From the NCBI RefSeq assembly GCF_000621585.1, contig NZ_KK211310.1, forward strand, positions 94,104 through 158,103: a stretch of 64,000 nt of DNA. Reading direction: 5' to 3'. Source of the DNA: [Eubacterium] cellulosolvens LD2006 (GTDB lineage Bacteria > Bacillota > Clostridia > Lachnospirales > Lachnospiraceae). Of this stretch, positions 42,125-52,095 are shown in pieces. Under the pieces are notes generated by a model that saw only the letters and a list, made by a program, of their open reading frames with translations, made no database searches and was not told where the DNA came from. Numbering within the stretch: the stretch's first letter is position 1; every line of letters starts with the position of its first letter. The position numbers and the translations under genes were made by a program.

Positions 42125-42156
42125 GATATTAGCAACACATTTTGAGGGGTATTTAC

Positions 42157-42894
42157 ATGGAATTTGCAAACAAAGAACTATTAGACCGTCTTCTTGAACA
42201 AAAAGAAGAAAAAATCTACCACAAGGACTACGACTCAGAAATTTTGTTTTACCAGCTTGTCAGCAGTGGCCAGGTGGGCGAATTACATCACACGTATTTT
42301 TCCCTGAAGCAGACAGGACTGGGCAAGCTCTCCAATGATCCGGTGAGAAATTACCGTTATCATTTCGTTATTTGTGCAGCTCTCATCAGCCGTTTCTGTA
42401 TCGAGGCAGGAATGAACGTGGAAATCGCTTACACGCTCAGTGATATGTACATCCAGAAGGCTGACCAGACAAGCAGAGAACAGGATCTCTATCATCTCCA
42501 CCGTCAGATGGTATTCGACTATGCTTCCAATATGAACATCATCAAGCGTGAGAGAAATGTCCACTCCACAAGAATCAACAAGGCGATTGATTACATCAAT
42601 AATCACCTTCATGACAACATCACGGTCAGTGATATCAGTACTCATCTCAGCATGAACAACTCTTATCTCTGCACCCTCTTCCGCAAGGAAACAGGCATGA
42701 CTGTGCACGCATTCATCGAGAAAAACAGGATTGATCTCGCAAAGAGTTATCTCTGCTACACAGACTACAGCTTCAGTGAAATCGCCGACATCCTCTGCTT
42801 CAGTTCTCAGAGTCACTTCATCTCTGTATTCAAGAAGCACACGGCTATGACTCCGAAGGAGTATCAGAAGGAAAACTACAGAAAAGCGTTCTGA
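42157..42894 (+). CDS. AraC/XylS-family transcriptional regulator next to the pilus operon
   Basis: 245 aa from the ATG at 42157, with GAGGGG 7 bases upstream. The N-terminal ~140 residues form a helical sensor-type domain without a recognisable cupin. The C-terminal ~100 residues are a standard AraC double helix-turn-helix: AIDYINNHLHDNITVSDIS and LSMNNSYLCTLFRKETG for the first, DYSFSEIADILCFSSQSHFI and FKKHTAMTPKEYQ for the second. It converges on the pilus operon end. In S. pyogenes FCT regions an AraC/XylS regulator (MsmR) occupies the equivalent place, so control of the pilus is a fair inference. Confidence 0.9.
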   Translation: MEFANKELLDRLLEQKEEKIYHKDYDSEILFYQLVSSGQVGELHHTYFSLKQTGLGKLSNDPVRNYRYHFVICAALISRFCIEAGMNVEIAYTLSDMYIQKADQTSREQDLYHLHRQMVFDYASNMNIIKRERNVHSTRINKAIDYINNHLHDNITVSDISTHLSMNNSYLCTLFRKETGMTVHAFIEKNRIDLAKSYLCYTDYSFSEIADILCFSSQSHFISVFKKHTAMTPKEYQKENYRKAF

Positions 42895-43305: not shown

Positions 43306-44286
43306 CTACTCGCGATCCTTGCGATTGAGTCTGCTGAGGAGAACCGCGAAGATGCTACTGATCAGGAGCACCACCGCATAGAGCACGAGGTTTGACTCAT
43401 CTCCGGTCATGACAGCGGCGACAAGTTTGCGAAGCCCTGAGCTTACTCCTCCGCTTGTGTTCCCGCTGTCATTTCCATCTGCGTCGATCCATCCGGGCGA
43501 CGGGTCTGAGGAGTTCTGATCGTGCCCGGGAAGATCGGCATTTGTAGGTGCCGGCGAGGTCTTCGGGTCGTTTCTGTCGCTGTCCGCCGGTGTCTCTGTG
43601 GGCTGAGTATCCACAGGATCCGGTGCGGTTGTTGGTGTTGGCCCGGCGGTAGGGGGCGGATCGTTTTCCCCTTCTTCATCTCCGTCTCCGGATATGAAGG
43701 AGATTTCGTCCACTTTTCCTTCTCTTCCGTCTTTTGTGATCCAGACTGCCGTATCAAGTTCGCCGCTTTCGCCTCTCCTGGACTCTGCATAGACGACGTA
43801 GACGCAGTTTGTGCACTCGATGTTCTGTTTCACATCCTTCATCTCGACGACGCGGAAACGGTGTGTTCCTTCCTCCGAGACAGGAATCCGGAAGGAACCG
43901 GTCTCTCCTGCCGAGAGGAGCAGCTGTTCGGGGAGAGGACGGACGCCGTCCAGACCTTCGATCCGGACGGTTAAGGGTTCGCTGTCGGATTCGATGGCCA
44001 CGGACTTATCGCCTTTGCGGATTTTTCCGAGTATCAGGCCGTCGGCACCCTTCCCCTGAACCGTCATCTGCTGACGGCTTTTGCTCTCTTTCACTGCCGC
44101 TATCCCTCCGGGTTTGATACGGACGCTGAGCTGAATATAGACCGTATCATTTTCCGAAGGACTTTCCTCTGCGCCGTGAACTTTCAGCGCCGAGATGAGA
44201 TGCAGCAACAGACAGACGACCACGAAGAGGATCATTTTCTTTATTCTGTTTTTTCTCTCTAGCTTGTTTATATTGACGTCGTCCAA
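43306..44286 (-). CDS. FctB-like pilus anchor (basal minor pilin)
   Basis: 326 aa. The start is TTG at 44286, with GGAGAG 6 bases upstream. Signal peptide about 17-39 (LFVVVCLLLHLISALKVHGA). A compact domain (about 45-195) shows the pilin-like strand pattern ending in GTHRFRVVEMKD and VYVVYAESR. A Pro/Thr/Asp/Gly-rich stretch (about 205-280) probably threads the cell wall. The C-terminus is a sorting signal: AVMTGDESN, hydrophobic helix, RLNRKDRE. The short domain plus Pro-rich tail and the last place in the operon match the S. pyogenes basal pilin FctB. The motif MTG departs from the xPTG of the other two pilus proteins, as expected for the subunit that ends polymerisation and is fixed to the wall (inference). 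Confidence 0.75.
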   Translation of the reverse strand: MDDVNINKLERKNRIKKMILFVVVCLLLHLISALKVHGAEESPSENDTVYIQLSVRIKPGGIAAVKESKSRQQMTVQGKGADGLILGKIRKGDKSVAIESDSEPLTVRIEGLDGVRPLPEQLLLSAGETGSFRIPVSEEGTHRFRVVEMKDVKQNIECTNCVYVVYAESRRGESGELDTAVWITKDGREGKVDEISFISGDGDEEGENDPPPTAGPTPTTAPDPVDTQPTETPADSDRNDPKTSPAPTNADLPGHDQNSSDPSPGWIDADGNDSGNTSGGVSSGLRKLVAAVMTGDESNLVLYAVVLLISSIFAVLLSRLNRKDRE

Positions 44287-44348
44287 GTCTTTCTCTCCTA
44301 CCAGGTAACAGAATGAAACGTTGAAACCTTACAGTCAGGCCGGATTCA

Positions 44349-44514
44349 CTAGTACACCATTCGCAAAATAACTGGACTAATGTGCAGAATGCTTGCCCGA
44401 GAGTGCGTGCCTGAAAACGCAGGCGTAGCGGGCTACGTCGAGGCTTTCAGGTGCGTGCTATCGGGATAAGCAGGCAAGCATTCGGTTCAGTTATTTAAGA
44501 AATGGTGTACTAGT
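44349..44514. repeat. 166-bp imperfect palindrome overlapping the sortase gene end
   Basis: Terminal inverted repeats are perfect over 14 bp (ACTAGTACACCATT / AATGGTGTACTAGT). Inward, AAATAACTG and GAATGCTTGCC pair with their complements on the other side, and the centre is CGTAGC-GG-GCTACG. The right arm encodes the last eight sortase residues and the stop codon. It looks like a small MITE-like insertion or a giant intercistronic RNA hairpin between sortase and anchor genes. Confidence 0.8.
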
Positions 44515-45278
44515 CTTCCGATGATCATGCATCTGCCGTTGGTACTTCCGTTCATACAGGTGGACAGTGCAATGAGCCTGTCCGTCGGCTGCAGATCAAT
44601 CTCTCGGTACTGACAGGCGTTCTTCTGAATCACCTGCAAAAAATCGCCCATAGTCTCCGGTGACTTGTCGGCAATGCTGTAAAACTGCTCGTCGTATGCG
44701 TCACAGGTTACACAGGCAAAGATCTCGATATCCATGGATCCCTCTGCGAGATAGAGATGTCCCGCTTTGTGATCCCTGAAATACTTTGCCTTCCGGAACT
44801 CTAATACATCTCCGAACATGGCTCCGTTGTCCATGTGATGCGCATACAGAATATTATAGGTATCCGTGAAATCCGGTTTGTTCACGCTGGACATAAATAC
44901 TGAGCCTGTCAGCGCAAAGTCTCCGTACACGTTTTTGTTGATATATTCCATATCATCCTCACCCTGAAGAACGGGGTAATCGATATGTGTGTCATCAATG
45001 GTAATCCAGGCTTTTACGTCCGGATTAATTTTCATCAGTTCTGCAAGTCCGGGATTCTCGTCTGTAGGAAGATCCGGATCCGGTTTGTACTTCTCCAGAT
45101 CCTCCGAGAGAAAAGCTCCCGTATATTCACAGTATGTCTCCCAGAGGGAAAACCCTCCGTAGAGAAGGAGACATACAATTAACAATTTTGCTAAAAAGTC
45201 TAAAACTTTGTTGCCTGCCTTTGCCACCCCTGACATACCGGCAAGCGTAAAATCCCATATATATAGTTCCTGCATCAT
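44487..45278 (-). CDS. Class B-type pilus sortase
   Basis: 263 aa, membrane-anchored by one N-terminal segment (about 31-48). SrtB-fold marks are the conserved VKAWITIDDTHIDYPVLQG and GSVFMSSVN, the catalytic His in YAHHMDNGAMFG, the catalytic Cys in ALSTCMN and the Arg eight or so residues later in NGRCMIIGR. It would link the xPTG pilins covalently. The protein ends in LVHHFLNN, encoded inside the adjacent palindrome, so its natural C-terminus has probably been replaced just after the last strand. It lies 16 bases downstream of the pilin gene, corresponding to SrtB/SrtC of streptococcal FCT loci. Confidence 0.9.
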   Translation of the reverse strand: MMQELYIWDFTLAGMSGVAKAGNKVLDFLAKLLIVCLLLYGGFSLWETYCEYTGAFLSEDLEKYKPDPDLPTDENPGLAELMKINPDVKAWITIDDTHIDYPVLQGEDDMEYINKNVYGDFALTGSVFMSSVNKPDFTDTYNILYAHHMDNGAMFGDVLEFRKAKYFRDHKAGHLYLAEGSMDIEIFACVTCDAYDEQFYSIADKSPETMGDFLQVIQKNACQYREIDLQPTDRLIALSTCMNGSTNGRCMIIGRLVHHFLNN

Positions 45279-45294: not shown

Positions 45295-46545
45295 TTAGTC
45301 AATAGTTTCTGTCTTTTTACTTCTGAAGAAAACAACTGCCAGAAGAAGTGCCATTACAACGATCATCAGATACGGTGCAACCATGCGTACAATACCTGTC
45401 GGTGTAACGTTCTCCGTCGAGCTTGTATTGGTGTAGGTGACATCACGGTCAGTGTCCATGTGAAGACCTGCTGTCCTTGCCGTCTCATCCTTGCTAAGGC
45501 TTCCTGTAGATGTGATCTCTGTCTTGTAGTTCTTCGCATCCTGCTCACTCTCTACAACCGTCACATTGGCAAGTTTTGCAAGTCCTTTGATGATGAGGCT
45601 GTCTCCACCCTTCAGACCTGCTGTGTATTCCTGTTTCACGCCGTTGTAGGACGGTACCGGGGAGGAATCACTGTTTGTTGTTGTCATCATATCTGCAGGA
45701 ATCTCCTGTGTGCCGTCAGCGGAAACCGTAAAGTTGAAAACGTCGGAGGCTTTTGCCATGGTTCCTTTGATGACCTTCTTGACAGTCAGATTGTAAGTCT
45801 CATAGATCGTCACGGCTGTGCCGCTGGTGGAACCTCCGTTTCCTCCGTTTCCTCCGTCATCTGTATAACCGGTAGTTTTCTTGTAGGTTACTGTTCCGCC
45901 GGTTCCTTTTTCTGCCTTGAGGAATACATAACCGACAATCTGATACTTGATAGATCCGTCGGAAGTTGAAACCGCATTCACGTAGACATCGATGTATCTC
46001 CTGGATTCTTCATCAGTGAGATCTGTATAAGCCGCATTGTACGCAACACTTTTGTTTGTTCTCTCTTCTTTTACCAGGAAGCGGTAAACGCCGGGAGCTC
46101 TCCACTCAATGGCAGAAAAGTCAATTTCAGCGTTCTCCGAAACCTCGGCCTTCTTTCCGCTGATGGCCACCTGACTGACACTTCCGGGGAAGCTTACGGT
46201 GACAGCTGTCGGGTTTACCGCTGTGGAAGCAATATAGTTGCCTGCCGATTCCTGATCCTTTCCGATCACTGTACCGGTCTCGGAGCTTCCTCCCTCCGGG
46301 ATCTCAACTCTTCCCACAAGACTGGTTTCATATTTGAACTCAGTAGCCGGAACATTGATTTTCACGCCATCCTCCGGGTTCGTGATGCGAAGTACCTTCT
46401 GGAAGGAAACGGAAGTGCCGGCTGCGGCTTTTCCATCGCTGCCAATGGCCGCTGCATCAGCGGACACTGCAGAAAGTCCCATCGAAATTGTCATGCAGAC
46501 AGCCGCAAAAGCTGCTGCAATTTTCTTTACCATTCTGTTTTTCAC
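45295..46545 (-). CDS. FctA/Spy0128-like major pilin with two isopeptide-type domains
   Basis: About 416 aa. GTG at 46545 is favoured because GGAG lies 7 bases upstream; an ATG four codons earlier has no ribosome site. A signal peptide ends near SADA. Numbering from the ATG at 46557: domain 1 (about 48-215) has Lys54 in SFQKVL, Glu164 in YRFLVKEE and Asn194 in IDVYVN. Domain 2 (about 250-380) has Lys261 in LTVKKVIKG, Glu336 in VTVVESE and Asn377 in VTYTN. These are the places expected for Lys-Asn isopeptide bonds with a catalytic Glu. A Gly-rich hinge (GGNGGNGGS) separates the domains. The C-terminus is VTPTG, hydrophobic helix, FRSKK, comparable to the QVPTG/EVPTG signals of FctA. Confidence 0.88.
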   Translation of the reverse strand: MKNRMVKKIAAAFAAVCMTISMGLSAVSADAAAIGSDGKAAAGTSVSFQKVLRITNPEDGVKINVPATEFKYETSLVGRVEIPEGGSSETGTVIGKDQESAGNYIASTAVNPTAVTVSFPGSVSQVAISGKKAEVSENAEIDFSAIEWRAPGVYRFLVKEERTNKSVAYNAAYTDLTDEESRRYIDVYVNAVSTSDGSIKYQIVGYVFLKAEKGTGGTVTYKKTTGYTDDGGNGGNGGSTSGTAVTIYETYNLTVKKVIKGTMAKASDVFNFTVSADGTQEIPADMMTTTNSDSSPVPSYNGVKQEYTAGLKGGDSLIIKGLAKLANVTVVESEQDAKNYKTEITSTGSLSKDETARTAGLHMDTDRDVTYTNTSSTENVTPTGIVRMVAPYLMIVVMALLLAVVFFRSKKTETID

Positions 46546-46659
46546 TTTTTTCTCCATCCTTTTTTGTCAAATGAACTGCTGTATTTAGGAAATAAAAGCG
46601 GTTCTGCCGGCGGTAAGGTCCGTCTGTACAGCAGGCATTACGCTGTATTCCACATAAAG

Positions 46660-47355
46660 TTAAAGGTTTGTGCGGCGGATCACGGTCATAACTTTTCCCG
46701 TGATTGCATCTTCATCGATGGCGCCGAAGTACCGGCTGTCCCTTCCACCTTCCCGGTGATCACACATGATGAAATACCGGCCGGCATCCATGGTCATCGG
46801 ATACTTCACCTCAGCAGAAAGCTGCGGCGTCTTGAAAAAGACTTTCGGTTCCGCCACGAGATAACCGTTGATCTTCACACTCTCAACTTCTGTGATCTCG
46901 ATCTCGTCCCCGTCCTTCGCGATGATCCTGCCGAGATACGTCTTTCCCTCTGCCTTGTAGGTGACTATATCGCCGGCGGCAAGTTCTCCCTTCCACCGGT
47001 AGTAGAACACGAGATCTCCCGCCCCGATGCCGGGGTTCATGTCATCGTTTGGAGATACTGTTACTCCAAAAACAACTCCGAAGATAAGATATAGCACGAA
47101 GGCCAGTGTTACGAAGCGGATTCCGAAGGACCGGATCTGCCGAAGCTGCCTTTTTCGACGTAGCTGTATATCTTTGCCAGAGTTTTTGCAGGAGCCTGTT
47201 GACGGGTCTGCAGATGAAACTGCCATAGCCGGAGACTCTGTTTCTGATTGTTCCACCGGCATTTCTTCGTTAGCAGTTTCCTTTTTCATCTTCCACTGCT
47301 CCGAATCCGCCTGCGGCGACTGCTCTGATAAAGTTTTCTCTGTCTGTCGTTTCAT
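46660..47355 (-). CDS. SipA/LepA-like pseudo-signal peptidase for pilus assembly
   Basis: 231 aa: a ~70-residue cytoplasmic tail, one membrane segment (about 78-97) and a type I signal peptidase fold. In active enzymes box B is SxMxP-like with the nucleophilic Ser; here the stretch is PNDDMNPG, with Asp105 in its place. The general-base Lys of YxKRVIG is Gly142 in TYLGRIIAKDGD. The rest of the fold is kept (GDIVTYKAEGKTY, FIMCDHREGGRDSRYFG). The same Asp/Gly substitution is known in S. pyogenes SipA, which is needed for pilus assembly. ATG at 47355 follows AAAGGAAG and overlaps the adhesin gene by 86 bases; an ATG at 47289 is possible. Confidence 0.88.
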   Translation of the reverse strand: MKRQTEKTLSEQSPQADSEQWKMKKETANEEMPVEQSETESPAMAVSSADPSTGSCKNSGKDIQLRRKRQLRQIRSFGIRFVTLAFVLYLIFGVVFGVTVSPNDDMNPGIGAGDLVFYYRWKGELAAGDIVTYKAEGKTYLGRIIAKDGDEIEITEVESVKINGYLVAEPKVFFKTPQLSAEVKYPMTMDAGRYFIMCDHREGGRDSRYFGAIDEDAITGKVMTVIRRTNL

Positions 47356-50300
47356 TTTTCTTCCTTTTTCGAATCAAATAAATGATCTGAAGAATCACTG
47401 CCAGCGCCACCATGACACCAAAAGGCATTCTGTTTCCGGAGATTCCGGTGGGCGCCACGGGATTGATCGTGAGCCAGGAGGTCGCATAGACAGCGATTTC
47501 GTCCCCGGAAGTTCCCCTGCTCTTCTGCGAGAGTGTCGCTTTCATGTAGATCTTGTAACGGCCGGGCTGGACCTCGGCAACAGACGCCAGATCTCCGTAG
47601 GTACCGTTTTTCGTCTTTGAGTAGGTGACATCGCTGAGGACATATCCCTCTTCATCCATCTGATCCTGGTACTCTTTCCGAAGTGTTCCCATGGAATAGC
47701 TGACATTCGCCTCATCGAGGGTGTGAGCGCTTCCGTCAAATTTTACAACCTTATCATCGGTATCAATTCTCGCCCAGAGCGCATCCAGAGTGTACTCACT
47801 GGTTGTGTGGTACTGGAACATGGCTCCGCTCTTCCGGATCGTAGGTCGGCTTAAGACCACCTGTTTTCCGTTCCGTGTTATCGTACGCTTCTTATCAAAC
47901 CAGCCGATAAAGGTGTATTCATCCGACACCGGCTGATCCTGTACAATCCGGATCTCCTCTGAGTCCGTAAACCTTCTGCGGTAAAAGAGCTTCCGGATAT
48001 TGGCATCGGTCTGATCAACGCCCTGAATCGATACCATGTCGTTCTCATCGTGCCCCTGGGGATAATCATCCGCCGTGCCGTCCTGCGACCATCTGGCATC
48101 GGGAAGATTCAGGTTGTACCCCACACGTCCGTTTGCGTTGACTACGTAAAAAATAACGGCTACGTCGTTATCGCTGTCTGTATCTTCCGCCGACAAAGGC
48201 TTCGGCATCAGAAACCGGATATTCCTGTACTTCTTCGAAATCTCATCATCCGAATTCTTGTCCTTGTCATAGTAGGTATACGGAATCGACGCACCCGACC
48301 GCAGGGTCATTACCTCCACCGCTTTCAGCATATAGTCCTTCGCCGAAAGGGATGGATCGTCCATGATACTGTCCACCGGACGATAGGGAACCACTACATT
48401 TCCCTTTTTCCTGTCCGGAGATACCATCTGATAATGATCACCGTATCCGTTGAGGTACTTCCCGTTCTCAATGTCGTAATACCAGATATAGACATGGGAC
48501 TGGGAATAATCCAGCTCCTTGTCCTTCGGTTTCAAAGAAACCACCAGGCGGGCGATAGATCTGGTTCCGGGGAAAGCATTCTGGATTCGGAAAGACATGT
48601 TCTGCACGCCATTATCTCCGTCCGGTTCTCCTTCTTCCAGCTCATATCGGAAGGTTTCCTCCGTCAGTCCGTTTTTATTATGTACATACATAAAGCTCTC
48701 GGAATACTCATATCCTTCAGGAAGAACCAGGTGGATATTATTCTTCTCACCGCAGCTTACAAGCTGTCCGTAAAAGCTTCCCGACTCAGCGGAAAGGGTT
48801 GCATAGTCCGTGAAATATCCGTAAGTATTCACATCAAGCAAAGAAGCGGTACTATCCTCTGCAAAGTAGTTTCTCTCCGAGCCGCTCAGGATATTATATG
48901 AACCTCGATCCGTGTAATAGTACAGCACCTGATAGCGCACAGATTTCGGCACAACAAAGAAAATGATGTTGAGGTCGTACTTCGCGTTGTCGAAGGACAC
49001 ACTGCTGACCTCTCTGTTTGCCTTCTTCAGACTGAAATTATTAATATCGTCTTTGCTTCGCGACGGAGGATTCCGGGGATCCCAGCTCTCAAATTCATAA
49101 AACTGCCGTTCACTGCCGTTCTTCAAAAAGCGTGCAGAATAAAACGTATAACTGTCTGAATCCAGCGGCAGGTTAATTCTGACTCCCGCATCCTCATAAA
49201 AGGATTCCTGATAATAAATCAGATCCGACGCATTCTTCTGCAATTCGGAAAACTCACGGTACTGCGCAGATTCATCCACGTAATAGACTGTGTATTTCTT
49301 CTGCTTTGTCAATTCCAGAACCACATTTACCGTCTGATACTGTCCGGTTCCCTGCACGAGAGGAGGCTCCTCCGTCAGTCGGAGACGCAGGGTGCCTGTC
49401 CCTTTTAACGCAGAAAACGAAGCACTTACTCCCTCCAGATATTCGTCATCTCCGAAGGCATACATTTTTCTCGTGTAACGGTAAGAAGATGGAATGGTCA
49501 GCTTCAGCTCAGAAAGCTCATTGAGCGAGGTAGTGAAAGTGACCGGTGTCTCCCCGGCCTCCGCTCTCCGGAAGGTACCGTCCGCATCCTGCGTAATCCC
49601 GGTGTAAATCGGCTGATAATTGCTGTCATAGCCCTCGTAGAAATAGAGCTGACAGGTGATCTTCGAGGGATCCGCCTCCGGTTCAGGCTCTGAATCGGTT
49701 TTCTGTTCCCCTCCGGAAGATTCATCATCCAGTCCCGGCTTTGCGAAAACCAGATAATTCATGGTCTCTTTTGAAGTATTTCCGTTCGCATCCAGAATCA
49801 CCACTTCACCTTTTTTTACGTTTCGCCTGTAAAGGAACATCGTCTGGTCTTGGCCAATCGAGTCAACAACCACCATACTTTGACCGGTGTCAGTCCAGCC
49901 ATCCCTCGCAAGCCATGAGGAAATATTCGCATTCGGTTCCGCGGTTTTATCAAACAGTCTGTGATCCGCTGCCAGGTAAACGGCAGCATCCATGCCCACG
50001 ATGAATCTGGCCTCCTCAGGCAGTATTCCGCCGTCATTCACATAATTCTTTGAATCACAGGCAGTGGAGAGGAACTCTGTTCCCTGCAGAACTGAAGGCA
50101 GAACCCCTCCTTTGGGGAAGACAGAACAGCGGTCGCCAAAGAAATGGTCACCCGCAGTCATTCCCGCGTCATCAATCACAGACCAGGCGTAGGCATTCGC
50201 CTCGTCTTCCACCCAGAGTTCCTGAATAACTCTTCCTTTTTGCCTTGCTTTTGTTGCAAAGACAACGTACTGGGCGAAGCCGCCTCCGGAGGGAGCATTC

Positions 50301-51904
50301 TCAATACTGCCCAGTTTCAACGTCTCACCGGCAGACATCTTTGTTCGATAAAGTCTGTACTTGATGGAGTTATTCTGATCGTCATTGACACTCAACAGCG
50401 CAGAATAATAGGAAAGCACGCTCCATCGGCCTTCCCGCAGCCAGGCCGGAAGTTCACCAACTCTCGTATCCATGGCCACCGTCAAATACATATCTTCTGC
50501 CGCCGTAACCTCTGCCTGGGTTCCTGCTGCCAGCTTATCCTTCCTTGCAGGCTGAAGAACCTCAGCTCCGATAATATAACCGGGCGCTGACTTGGCAGTA
50601 AGAGTACTGTCCTTTCCATAGACCTCAGAATTGCTCCTGGAGTGAATTCCGTCTTCGGGAATATCCTCATAGAGCCGGAAATCCTGCTGGATTTCCCAGT
50701 CAGAAGCATGATCCGTATAGAGTTTTACAGATTTGATCAGACGTCCGCTGATGGTTCTTTTCACCGTTCCCGTCGTAGGTTTCGGCGTAGCTGTGGGCTT
50801 CGTGGTAGATGAAGCCTTCGGCGTGGGCGTAGGTTTTCCGGTCGTCGACGGTTTCGGCGCAGACGTCGAGGCCGTCTTCTTCTGTACTACATAAATGATC
50901 TCCGCATCTTTTGGATTGATCTTCTTGCTCTTCATCTTGATGGAGAGATCTTTATTAATGGTCACATATTTACTGGTTCCCTGAGCCTCTCGGCCATTCA
51001 GATCCCGGCTGTAGTAAACTGCTTCTTCTCCTTCTTCTCCTTCTTTTCCTGCAATCATAGTTCCTTTTTGGTATATCTTGTCGTTCTTTTTATTACCCTC
51101 AAAATACATAGATCCGTTTCTGTCAGGGACGTAAATCGCACGGATAATTTCATACTCTTTCCAAAAATCCAGATTTATGTAGTTGTAAAAATACCTGTCG
51201 AGAACAGGATTGTCATGAGCAGCCGGATCCGCAGACCCACGATCCGCCTCATCCAGCATCATTTGATATACATCTTCCCCGTTGGAAGCTTTCATCGATG
51301 TGTAAGTGACATAGCACGCATAAATCTTTGAAGATACAGATGCAGTGACGGCCTTGGATTCCCCAAGCATAGCCGCCAGATCATAACCGCCGGCCGTAGC
51401 GGTATTCACATTTGCGATGCGGGATTTGAATGTATCAGAAAAGGGATCATCCTGCGGCTGATCCTTCATCTCTTCCCTATTCTCATCTCCATCTTTATTT
51501 CCGTTTGTATTTCCATTCGTACTTTCGGTTGAATTCCCGCCGTTGTCGTCCGGGATCACATCCGTTGCCGGCTGATTTCCGTTTTCTTCTGCGGGTTTGG
51601 TTCCGGGTGTCGGACCTGCAATACCGGGTTCCGGCTCCCCATCCTCTTCACGGGTCAGAGTCTCCTCTGCCGGTATTCCGGAAGAATTCTCACTGCTCTG
51701 TTCTGCAGAATATGCATTATTTGAAGCAAGAGCATTCACGGCATTCTGCATTCTCTCCACGGCGCCTTCCTGATTCAAATCAGAATCAGAAACCACGTCG
51801 GCATAAGAGTCATTCACACAGCCAACCACAGTAGAAGACGCAGTGGTGGCGATGACACACAGAATTGCAGCGAATCGATAGACTCTGTTCAGCAGTTTCT
51901 TCAA
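47270..51904 (-). CDS. Large pilus-associated adhesin (Cpa-like position), xPTG-anchored
   Basis: About 1544 aa. TTG at 51904 is preferred because GAGGTGA lies just upstream; a GTG three codons earlier lacks one. Signal peptide about 1-35. A Ser/Glu/Asn-rich stretch is followed by several beta-rich domains separated by Pro/Thr linkers (for example KPTPTPKASSTTKPTATPKP). Near the C-terminus an InlB/Flg_new-type repeat (YTFIGWFDKK ... YTLDALWA) precedes a last domain and the sorting signal VAPTG, hydrophobic helix, RKRKK. An unusual 28-residue hydrophilic tail after the basic patch is encoded where the gene overlaps the SipA-like gene. First gene of the operon, as cpa is in FCT loci. No thioester motif could be recognised. 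Confidence 0.85.
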   Translation of the reverse strand: MKKLLNRVYRFAAILCVIATTASSTVVGCVNDSYADVVSDSDLNQEGAVERMQNAVNALASNNAYSAEQSSENSSGIPAEETLTREEDGEPEPGIAGPTPGTKPAEENGNQPATDVIPDDNGGNSTESTNGNTNGNKDGDENREEMKDQPQDDPFSDTFKSRIANVNTATAGGYDLAAMLGESKAVTASVSSKIYACYVTYTSMKASNGEDVYQMMLDEADRGSADPAAHDNPVLDRYFYNYINLDFWKEYEIIRAIYVPDRNGSMYFEGNKKNDKIYQKGTMIAGKEGEEGEEAVYYSRDLNGREAQGTSKYVTINKDLSIKMKSKKINPKDAEIIYVVQKKTASTSAPKPSTTGKPTPTPKASSTTKPTATPKPTTGTVKRTISGRLIKSVKLYTDHASDWEIQQDFRLYEDIPEDGIHSRSNSEVYGKDSTLTAKSAPGYIIGAEVLQPARKDKLAAGTQAEVTAAEDMYLTVAMDTRVGELPAWLREGRWSVLSYYSALLSVNDDQNNSIKYRLYRTKMSAGETLKLGSIENAPSGGGFAQYVVFATKARQKGRVIQELWVEDEANAYAWSVIDDAGMTAGDHFFGDRCSVFPKGGVLPSVLQGTEFLSTACDSKNYVNDGGILPEEARFIVGMDAAVYLAADHRLFDKTAEPNANISSWLARDGWTDTGQSMVVVDSIGQDQTMFLYRRNVKKGEVVILDANGNTSKETMNYLVFAKPGLDDESSGGEQKTDSEPEPEADPSKITCQLYFYEGYDSNYQPIYTGITQDADGTFRRAEAGETPVTFTTSLNELSELKLTIPSSYRYTRKMYAFGDDEYLEGVSASFSALKGTGTLRLRLTEEPPLVQGTGQYQTVNVVLELTKQKKYTVYYVDESAQYREFSELQKNASDLIYYQESFYEDAGVRINLPLDSDSYTFYSARFLKNGSERQFYEFESWDPRNPPSRSKDDINNFSLKKANREVSSVSFDNAKYDLNIIFFVVPKSVRYQVLYYYTDRGSYNILSGSERNYFAEDSTASLLDVNTYGYFTDYATLSAESGSFYGQLVSCGEKNNIHLVLPEGYEYSESFMYVHNKNGLTEETFRYELEEGEPDGDNGVQNMSFRIQNAFPGTRSIARLVVSLKPKDKELDYSQSHVYIWYYDIENGKYLNGYGDHYQMVSPDRKKGNVVVPYRPVDSIMDDPSLSAKDYMLKAVEVMTLRSGASIPYTYYDKDKNSDDEISKKYRNIRFLMPKPLSAEDTDSDNDVAVIFYVVNANGRVGYNLNLPDARWSQDGTADDYPQGHDENDMVSIQGVDQTDANIRKLFYRRRFTDSEEIRIVQDQPVSDEYTFIGWFDKKRTITRNGKQVVLSRPTIRKSGAMFQYHTTSEYTLDALWARIDTDDKVVKFDGSAHTLDEANVSYSMGTLRKEYQDQMDEEGYVLSDVTYSKTKNGTYGDLASVAEVQPGRYKIYMKATLSQKSRGTSGDEIAVYATSWLTINPVAPTGISGNRMPFGVMVALAVILQIIYLIRKRKKNETTDRENFIRAVAAGGFGAVEDEKGNC

Positions 51905-52095
51905 AAGAATCACCTCGTAAAAATGTACCCGTTAGATCCGTCAATTGCAAAAAATTCGACAAAATTTGTCTATTTTGCAACGTTTGAAACTAAACATCCC
52001 TTTTTAGTTTCCGAAAGTGCGAAGAATATCCACATATATATACTTTCAAATAGGTGTGCCTTAGCAAACCATCTGTTTTAGTAATCATCGGTAAC
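51905..52095 (-). promoter_or_regulatory. Structured ~180-base leader of the pilus operon
   Basis: Two hairpins are visible: GAAACTAAA/TTTAGTTTC (51986-52011, perfect, 8-base loop) and TTGCAAAA...TTTTGCAA enclosing GACAAA/TTTGTC (about 51945-51982). No terminator T-run was found, and no GEMM c-di-GMP riboswitch core could be recognised. Confidence 0.5.
51953..51965 (-). promoter_or_regulatory. Spo0A-box-like site in the pilus leader
   Basis: AATTCGACAAAAT (reverse complement contains TTTGTCGAA), identical over 13 bases to the site before the araC promoter. It lies about 130 bases past the predicted start of transcription, inside the lower hairpin, so its effect, if any, would be repression or it may serve another promoter. 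Confidence 0.4.

What the first reader, a model, noticed from the sequence alone, without database searches (positions are those of the whole stretch)
46660..47355. Pseudo-signal peptidase with Ser-to-Asp and Lys-to-Gly at the catalytic dyad
The nucleophile position is Asp105 (DDMNPG) and the general-base position is Gly142 (TYLGRII), while the rest of the type I signal peptidase fold is kept. The same two replacements are described for streptococcal SipA, a pilus-assembly factor without peptidase activity. Seeing both in a distant phylum branch suggests that Asp/Gly is selected, not merely lost.
Basis: partly seen in the sequence, partly recalled or inferred. Interest (0 to 1): 0.72.

Follow-up and report, generated by a model that had tools for sequence, protein, structure and literature searches.

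The report
Dead signal peptidase in pilus operon
The gene makes an inactive relative of signal peptidase, the counterpart of the streptococcal pilus-assembly helper SipA, but a survey of related bacteria shows that its much-noted Asp/Gly pair drifts freely while a fixed tail at the very end of the protein does not.

Summary
Observation confirmed. ORF 46660-47355 (-) is a 231-aa S26 protein with Asp105 in place of the catalytic Ser and Gly142 in place of the Lys. It lies in a five-gene operon (adhesin, SipA, major pilin, class B sortase, minor pilin) in the order of the S. pyogenes FCT pilus locus. SipA, sortase and pilin each find their S. pyogenes counterpart as best solved-structure match (4n31, 3psq; 3gle/3b2m). 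It is a new member of the known SipA family.

The inference "Asp/Gly is selected" is not supported. All 65 Lys-less homologues, S. pyogenes SipA included, form one clade, so the shared pair is not independent evidence. Inside the clade the Ser position evolves at an average rate (D 27, S 13, E 6, G 6, others), and published D61A and D61S mutants of S. pyogenes SipA still polymerise pili.

What is kept: 62 of 64 surveyed dead copies lie near a class B sortase (active copies 2 of 39), and 64 of 65 end exactly four residues after an invariant Arg with Ile, Leu or Phe (active enzymes 0 of 43). I propose that SipA is a non-catalytic partner of class B pilus sortases, acting through its cleft and this tail. 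That last step is inference.

The parts
46660..47355 (-). sipA-like gene: pseudo-signal peptidase I, 231 aa; disordered N-terminal tail, membrane helix (model helix 56-95), extracytoplasmic S26 domain
   Evidence: best PDB match S. pyogenes SipA 4n31 (E 9e-24, 87.6 bits; best active SPase 33.3 bits); model matches 4n31 at 1.3-1.7 A
47041..47043 (-). [quoted passage not shown] coli Ser90, GAS SipA Asp48)
   Evidence: varies in the clade
46930..46932 (-). [quoted passage not shown] coli Lys145, GAS SipA Gly85)
   Evidence: G in 44 of 65
46663..46677 (-). C-terminal tail Arg227-Arg-Thr-Asn-Leu231-stop: the SipA-specific signature R-x-x-x-(I/L/F) at the free C-terminus
   Evidence: 64 of 65 clade members end exactly 4 residues after this Arg; 0 of 43 active homologues fit
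47270..51913 (-). large surface protein, 1547 aa, presumed tip adhesin, with VAPTG sorting motif; its 3' end overlaps sipA by 86 bp
   Evidence: sequence ...NPVAPTGISGNRMP, hydrophobic stretch, basic tail; no Pfam domain
45295..46557 (-). major pilin, 420 aa, VTPTG sorting motif
   Evidence: Best PDB matches are S. pyogenes Spy0128 structures 3gle (1.8e-07) and 3b2m (2e-07); DUF7601
44487..45278 (-). class B sortase, 263 aa, presumed pilus polymerase
   Evidence: TIGR03064 2.2e-54; best PDB match Spy0129 3psq, 165 bits, then 4y4q 150 bits; all other listed SrtB structures 94 bits or less
43306..44286 (-). minor (presumed basal) pilin, 326 aa
   Evidence: srtB_target TIGR03063 E 0.0027, just under its cut-off; position matches fctB

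Best explanation
It is the SipA of a class-B-sortase pilus operon. Shown here: orthology to S. pyogenes SipA, the full FCT-like gene order, and loss of the catalytic Ser and Lys and of two accessory catalytic positions. Inferred: after a housekeeping signal peptidase removes the pilins' signal peptides, SipA sits in the membrane beside the class B sortase and holds a pilin segment (probably the sorting-signal region) in its retained cleft, so that the sortase, which lacks the lid of class C enzymes, can join VxPTG-type pilins. The Asp and Gly mark loss of catalysis and do no specific work. The conserved working surface is more likely the cleft plus the membrane-side sheet with Asp114 and the fixed C-terminal tail R227-x-x-x-(I/L/F).
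For: Gene order adhesin-SipA-pilin-SrtB-minor pilin equals cpa-sipA-fctA-srtC-fctB (PMC4049620). Three of five products have their S. pyogenes counterpart as best solved-structure match. Predicted fold closest to 4n31. One clade of 65 Lys-less sequences incl. GAS SipA, 98/97 support. Linkage: 62 of 64 surveyed Lys-less copies within 6.5 kb of a class B sortase, 2 of 39 S/K copies. Converse: of 34 pilus-type class B sortases in 250 genomes, 29 lie by a SipA; of the other 5, two share a genome with an orphan SipA, two are at contig ends, one is truncated. In that genome (G178) one stand-alone SipA (L283:10377-10943) meets two SipA-less pilus clusters (L278, L279), so it is retained apart from the operon. 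Retained positions: Arg143, Asp199, Asp206, Arg208 in 65/65; Asp114 65/65 (active 22/44); Arg227 64/64; C-terminal rule 64/65 against 0/43. SipA is essential for GAS pilus polymerisation (PMC4049620; review PMC7900414).
Against: No experiment in this organism; that the operon makes a pilus is by homology. Published pull-downs found no binding of GAS SipA to pilin, sortase or peptides (PMC4049620), and V99R in the cleft had no effect, so the cleft-binding step is unproven. Conservation of Asp114 and Arg227 may be structural (a pair in the membrane-side sheet). The adhesin and minor pilin are assigned by position and sorting motif only.
Confidence: 0.85

Rival explanations
1. Asp105/Gly142 are themselves selected: the acidic residue and Gly form a new functional site.
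For: D is the commonest state (27/65) and in the window's 20-member clade D 17, E 2, S 1 and G 18. GAS SipA has the same pair.
Against: 26 changes at the Ser position on the tree, average site rate; copies with S/R, G/A, M/Y, R/S keep operon, tail and family, M/Y even in the same genus (G1025:C51); D61A and D61S mutants of GAS SipA function.
Confidence: 0.08
2. It is an active peptidase with a different catalytic residue (for example Asp105 as base), a pilus-specific protease.
For: The cleft and box residues are largely kept. Some clade members keep Ser with Arg or Gly at the Lys position.
Against: The proposed residues are replaced many times without loss of the operon. Nearby Lys83 of GAS is Tyr140 here, and K only 3 times in the clade. 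No peptidase activity found for GAS SipA.
Confidence: 0.04
3. A decaying relic of a pilus-linked signal peptidase, kept only by hitch-hiking in the operon.
For: Catalytic residues lost; average rates at those sites.
Against: dN/dS 0.215 against the sister copy; many positions invariant or nearly so over 65 sequences; exact C-terminal rule; kept as a stand-alone gene in G178; essential in S. pyogenes.
Confidence: 0.03

Closest known systems
SipA/LepA of S. pyogenes FCT-2/3/4 pilus loci (PDB 4n31, 4k8w)
   Same: S26 fold (TM 0.89 by target, 1.7 A), Asp/Gly at the dyad, position between adhesin and major pilin genes, class B sortase partner, C-terminal R-x-x-x-I (GAS Arg169-Ile173).
   Different: 37% identical in the structural alignment; long disordered N-terminal tail; Tyr in place of Lys83; a Clostridia-type host (nearest named record: MAG Eubacterium sp.) instead of Streptococcus.
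C. perfringens VR-10B (necrotic enteritis) pilus operon
   Different: That signal peptidase was not described as dead in the passages read; its sequence was not compared here.
Bacterial type I signal peptidase (S26A: LepB, SpsB)
   Same: Homologous fold and boxes; scores over TIGR02227's cut-off (88.8 against 47), so automatic annotation would call it an active signal peptidase.
   Different: Lacks Ser90, Lys145, Gly272 and Ser278 equivalents; falls in a separate clade.

Membership tests
SipA/LepA pilus-assembly factor | S26 signal-peptidase fold with N-terminal membrane helix | tested here: met
SipA/LepA pilus-assembly factor | Catalytic Ser and Lys both absent | tested here: met
   Asp105, Gly142
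SipA/LepA pilus-assembly factor | Operon with pilins and a class B sortase, order adhesin-sipA-pilin-sortase-minor pilin | tested here: met
SipA/LepA pilus-assembly factor | Groups with S. pyogenes SipA apart from active signal peptidases | tested here: met
   (98/97)
SipA/LepA pilus-assembly factor | No peptidase activity | not testable with these tools
   Needs purified protein
SipA/LepA pilus-assembly factor | Required for pilus polymerisation | not testable with these tools
   Needs a deletion strain or heterologous operon
Active type I signal peptidase (S26A) | Ser-Lys catalytic dyad | tested here: not met

The most novel reading that the evidence does not exclude
Across Clostridia, class B pilus sortases depend on a dead signal peptidase whose free C-terminus, R-x-x-x-(I/L/F)-COOH, is the conserved docking element (to sortase, pilin or membrane), and a single SipA can serve several pilus loci in trans.
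Probability: 0.35. Interest if true: 0.6.

Novelty: new member of a known kind. Interest (0 to 1): 0.4.

Why it matters
How SipA works, and why only class B pilus sortases need it, is an open question in the pilus field (PMC7900414, PMC4049620). The survey moves attention from the Asp/Gly pair, which drifts, to residues that do not: Asp114 and the exact C-terminal tail (GAS Asp57 and Arg169-Ile173), not among the S. pyogenes mutants reported in the passages I read. It also shows that the SipA/class B sortase pair recurs in many Clostridia genomes, and that automatic annotation will mislabel these dead copies as signal peptidase I.

Tried and rejected
Looked for a substitute Ser/Lys pair in the active site (Ser101, the GAS Lys83 position): not conserved. 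Looked for plasmid-borne relatives: only ordinary LepB enzymes. Searched the literature for SipA in Clostridia: one class-B-sortase pilus operon with a 'signal peptidase' in C. perfringens, none on Lachnospiraceae. A phylum-wide search added only one genome with a SipA-like protein outside the class (G779).

Full report
Observation. The ORF at 46660-47355 on the minus strand is real: 231 aa, ATG start behind a purine-rich stretch, S26 by Pfam and TIGRFAM. Asp105 and Gly142 occupy the columns of the catalytic Ser and Lys, as Asp48 and Gly85 do in the solved S. pyogenes SipA. The accessory catalytic positions are gone too: E. coli Gly272 is Cys198 and Ser278 is Gly204. Four other S26 proteins in the genome keep Ser/Lys, so the cell has active-looking signal peptidases.

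Context. On the minus strand the order is 1547-aa surface protein (VAPTG), SipA, 420-aa pilin (VTPTG), class B sortase, 326-aa minor pilin. The best solved-structure matches are GAS SipA (87.6 bits; best active SPase 33 bits), the GAS pilus sortase Spy0129 (165 bits) and the GAS major pilin Spy0128. This is the cpa-sipA-fctA-srtC-fctB order of S. pyogenes (PMC4049620). A model built on 18 relatives (mean pLDDT 80.6, core over 90) finds 4n31 first.

Survey. Relatives were sought in samples of the family, genus, class and phylum and neighbourhoods of mostly 13-20 kb pulled. After removal of duplicates, 103 survey sequences, the four other own-genome S26 proteins, GAS SipA and S. aureus SpsB were aligned. 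64 survey sequences, the window's included, lack Lys; 62 of them have a class B sortase-like ORF within 6.5 kb; the two others are a stand-alone gene (L040) and a contig end (L209). 39 survey sequences keep Ser/Lys; only two have such an ORF within that distance, one because it shares a locus with a dead copy (L208). All 20 sortases of a test set match the class B model. The active set consists of those most similar to SipA, so it is not a random sample of signal peptidases.

Converse. With a profile made from SipA-linked sortases (so biased towards them), about 34 class B sortases over 200 bits plus one truncated copy at that level were read from the list for 250 genomes; I count 29 near a SipA by coordinates and five not. 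Of the five, two are in G178, whose only SipA (D/G, L283:10377-10943) stands alone about 0.9 and 1.1 Mb away beside the ATP synthase genes while both pilus clusters lack one (L278, L279); two have their upstream side cut by a contig end (L280, L281); one is truncated (L282). The count was made by hand from the table and is approximate by one or two.

Is Asp/Gly selected? Tree of 109 sequences, dyad columns removed, 159 columns: Ser/Lys against the rest needs one change (98/97 support; 98% of bootstrap trees), with GAS SipA inside the Lys-less clade. Asp needs 11 changes, the Ser-position residue 26, Gly 9. The Ser position has an average rate in the clade (87th slowest of 162) and is 3rd slowest of 160 in active enzymes; the Lys position ranks 52 and 5. 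Even the window's genus holds D/G, E/G and M/Y copies. With the published result that D61A, D61S and D61A/K98A mutants work, the pair is best read as what is left after catalysis was lost. A moderate local preference remains in the window's 20-member clade (D 17, E 2, S 1).

What is constrained. Arg143, Asp199, Asp206 and Arg208 are invariant in both sets, hence probably structural. Specific to SipA are Asp114 (65/65 against 22/44), Leu115, Tyr/Phe119 and Arg227 (64/64; Arg only 8 times at that column in active enzymes). The protein ends exactly four residues after Arg227 with I, L or F in 64 of 65 (the exception is cut by a contig end), against 0 of 43 active homologues. The orphan SipA of G178 obeys the rule too (...ILRRSSL), so it does not come from overlap with a following pilin gene. 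In S. pyogenes this is Arg169-Ile173, the end of that protein's extracellular region. The mutations reported in the passages I read are D61, K98 and V99, and a search of that paper's main text found no mention of Arg169, Asp57 or Ile173. By published topology the last strand lies in the membrane-associated sheet, so the tail is at the membrane surface; whether it docks to sortase, pilin or lipid is open.

Verdict. A new member of the SipA family, correctly spotted. The family assignment is firm; the proposed selection on Asp/Gly is not supported; the tail and the strict pairing with class B sortases are the features worth testing. Limits: genomes of the survey are unnamed, only one Streptococcus sequence was in the tree, and function is inferred from homology.

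Noticed in passing
window 44347-44513: A 167-bp near-palindromic MITE-like insertion (DNA hairpin z -6.7) at the end of the sortase gene, absent from the sister locus L036; it changes the sortase's end from ...GRLVNPA to ...GRLVHHFLNN. 28 full or partial matches in the genome.
   Followed up: partly
L041:5449-6780, L042:5784-7289, L047:8813-10165, L192:5932-7197, L195:7604-9025: A subgroup in which SipA is followed directly by a 420-500 aa class B sortase with a C-terminal extension holding extra hydrophobic, membrane-like segments and no pilin gene in between.
   Followed up: no
L208:5899-6468 and L208:9440-9997: One pilus locus carries both a dead (S/R) and an intact (S/K) S26 protein.
   Followed up: no
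L211:6931-7488: The sister genome G1025 has a second SipA with Met/Tyr at the dyad, beside another class B sortase.
   Followed up: no
window 42142-42894: AraC-family regulator gene convergent with the operon, kept at the same place in L036; S. pyogenes FCT loci also carry msmR, which I recall as AraC-type.
   Followed up: no
window 47270-47355; L036:7274-7587: The adhesin ORF overlaps sipA by 86 bp here and by 314 bp in the sister, with unrelated C-terminal tails, so the reading frame differs near the 3' end.
   Followed up: no
L283:10377-10943, L278, L279: Genome G178: stand-alone SipA beside ATP synthase genes, two SipA-less class B sortase pilus clusters elsewhere.
   Followed up: yes
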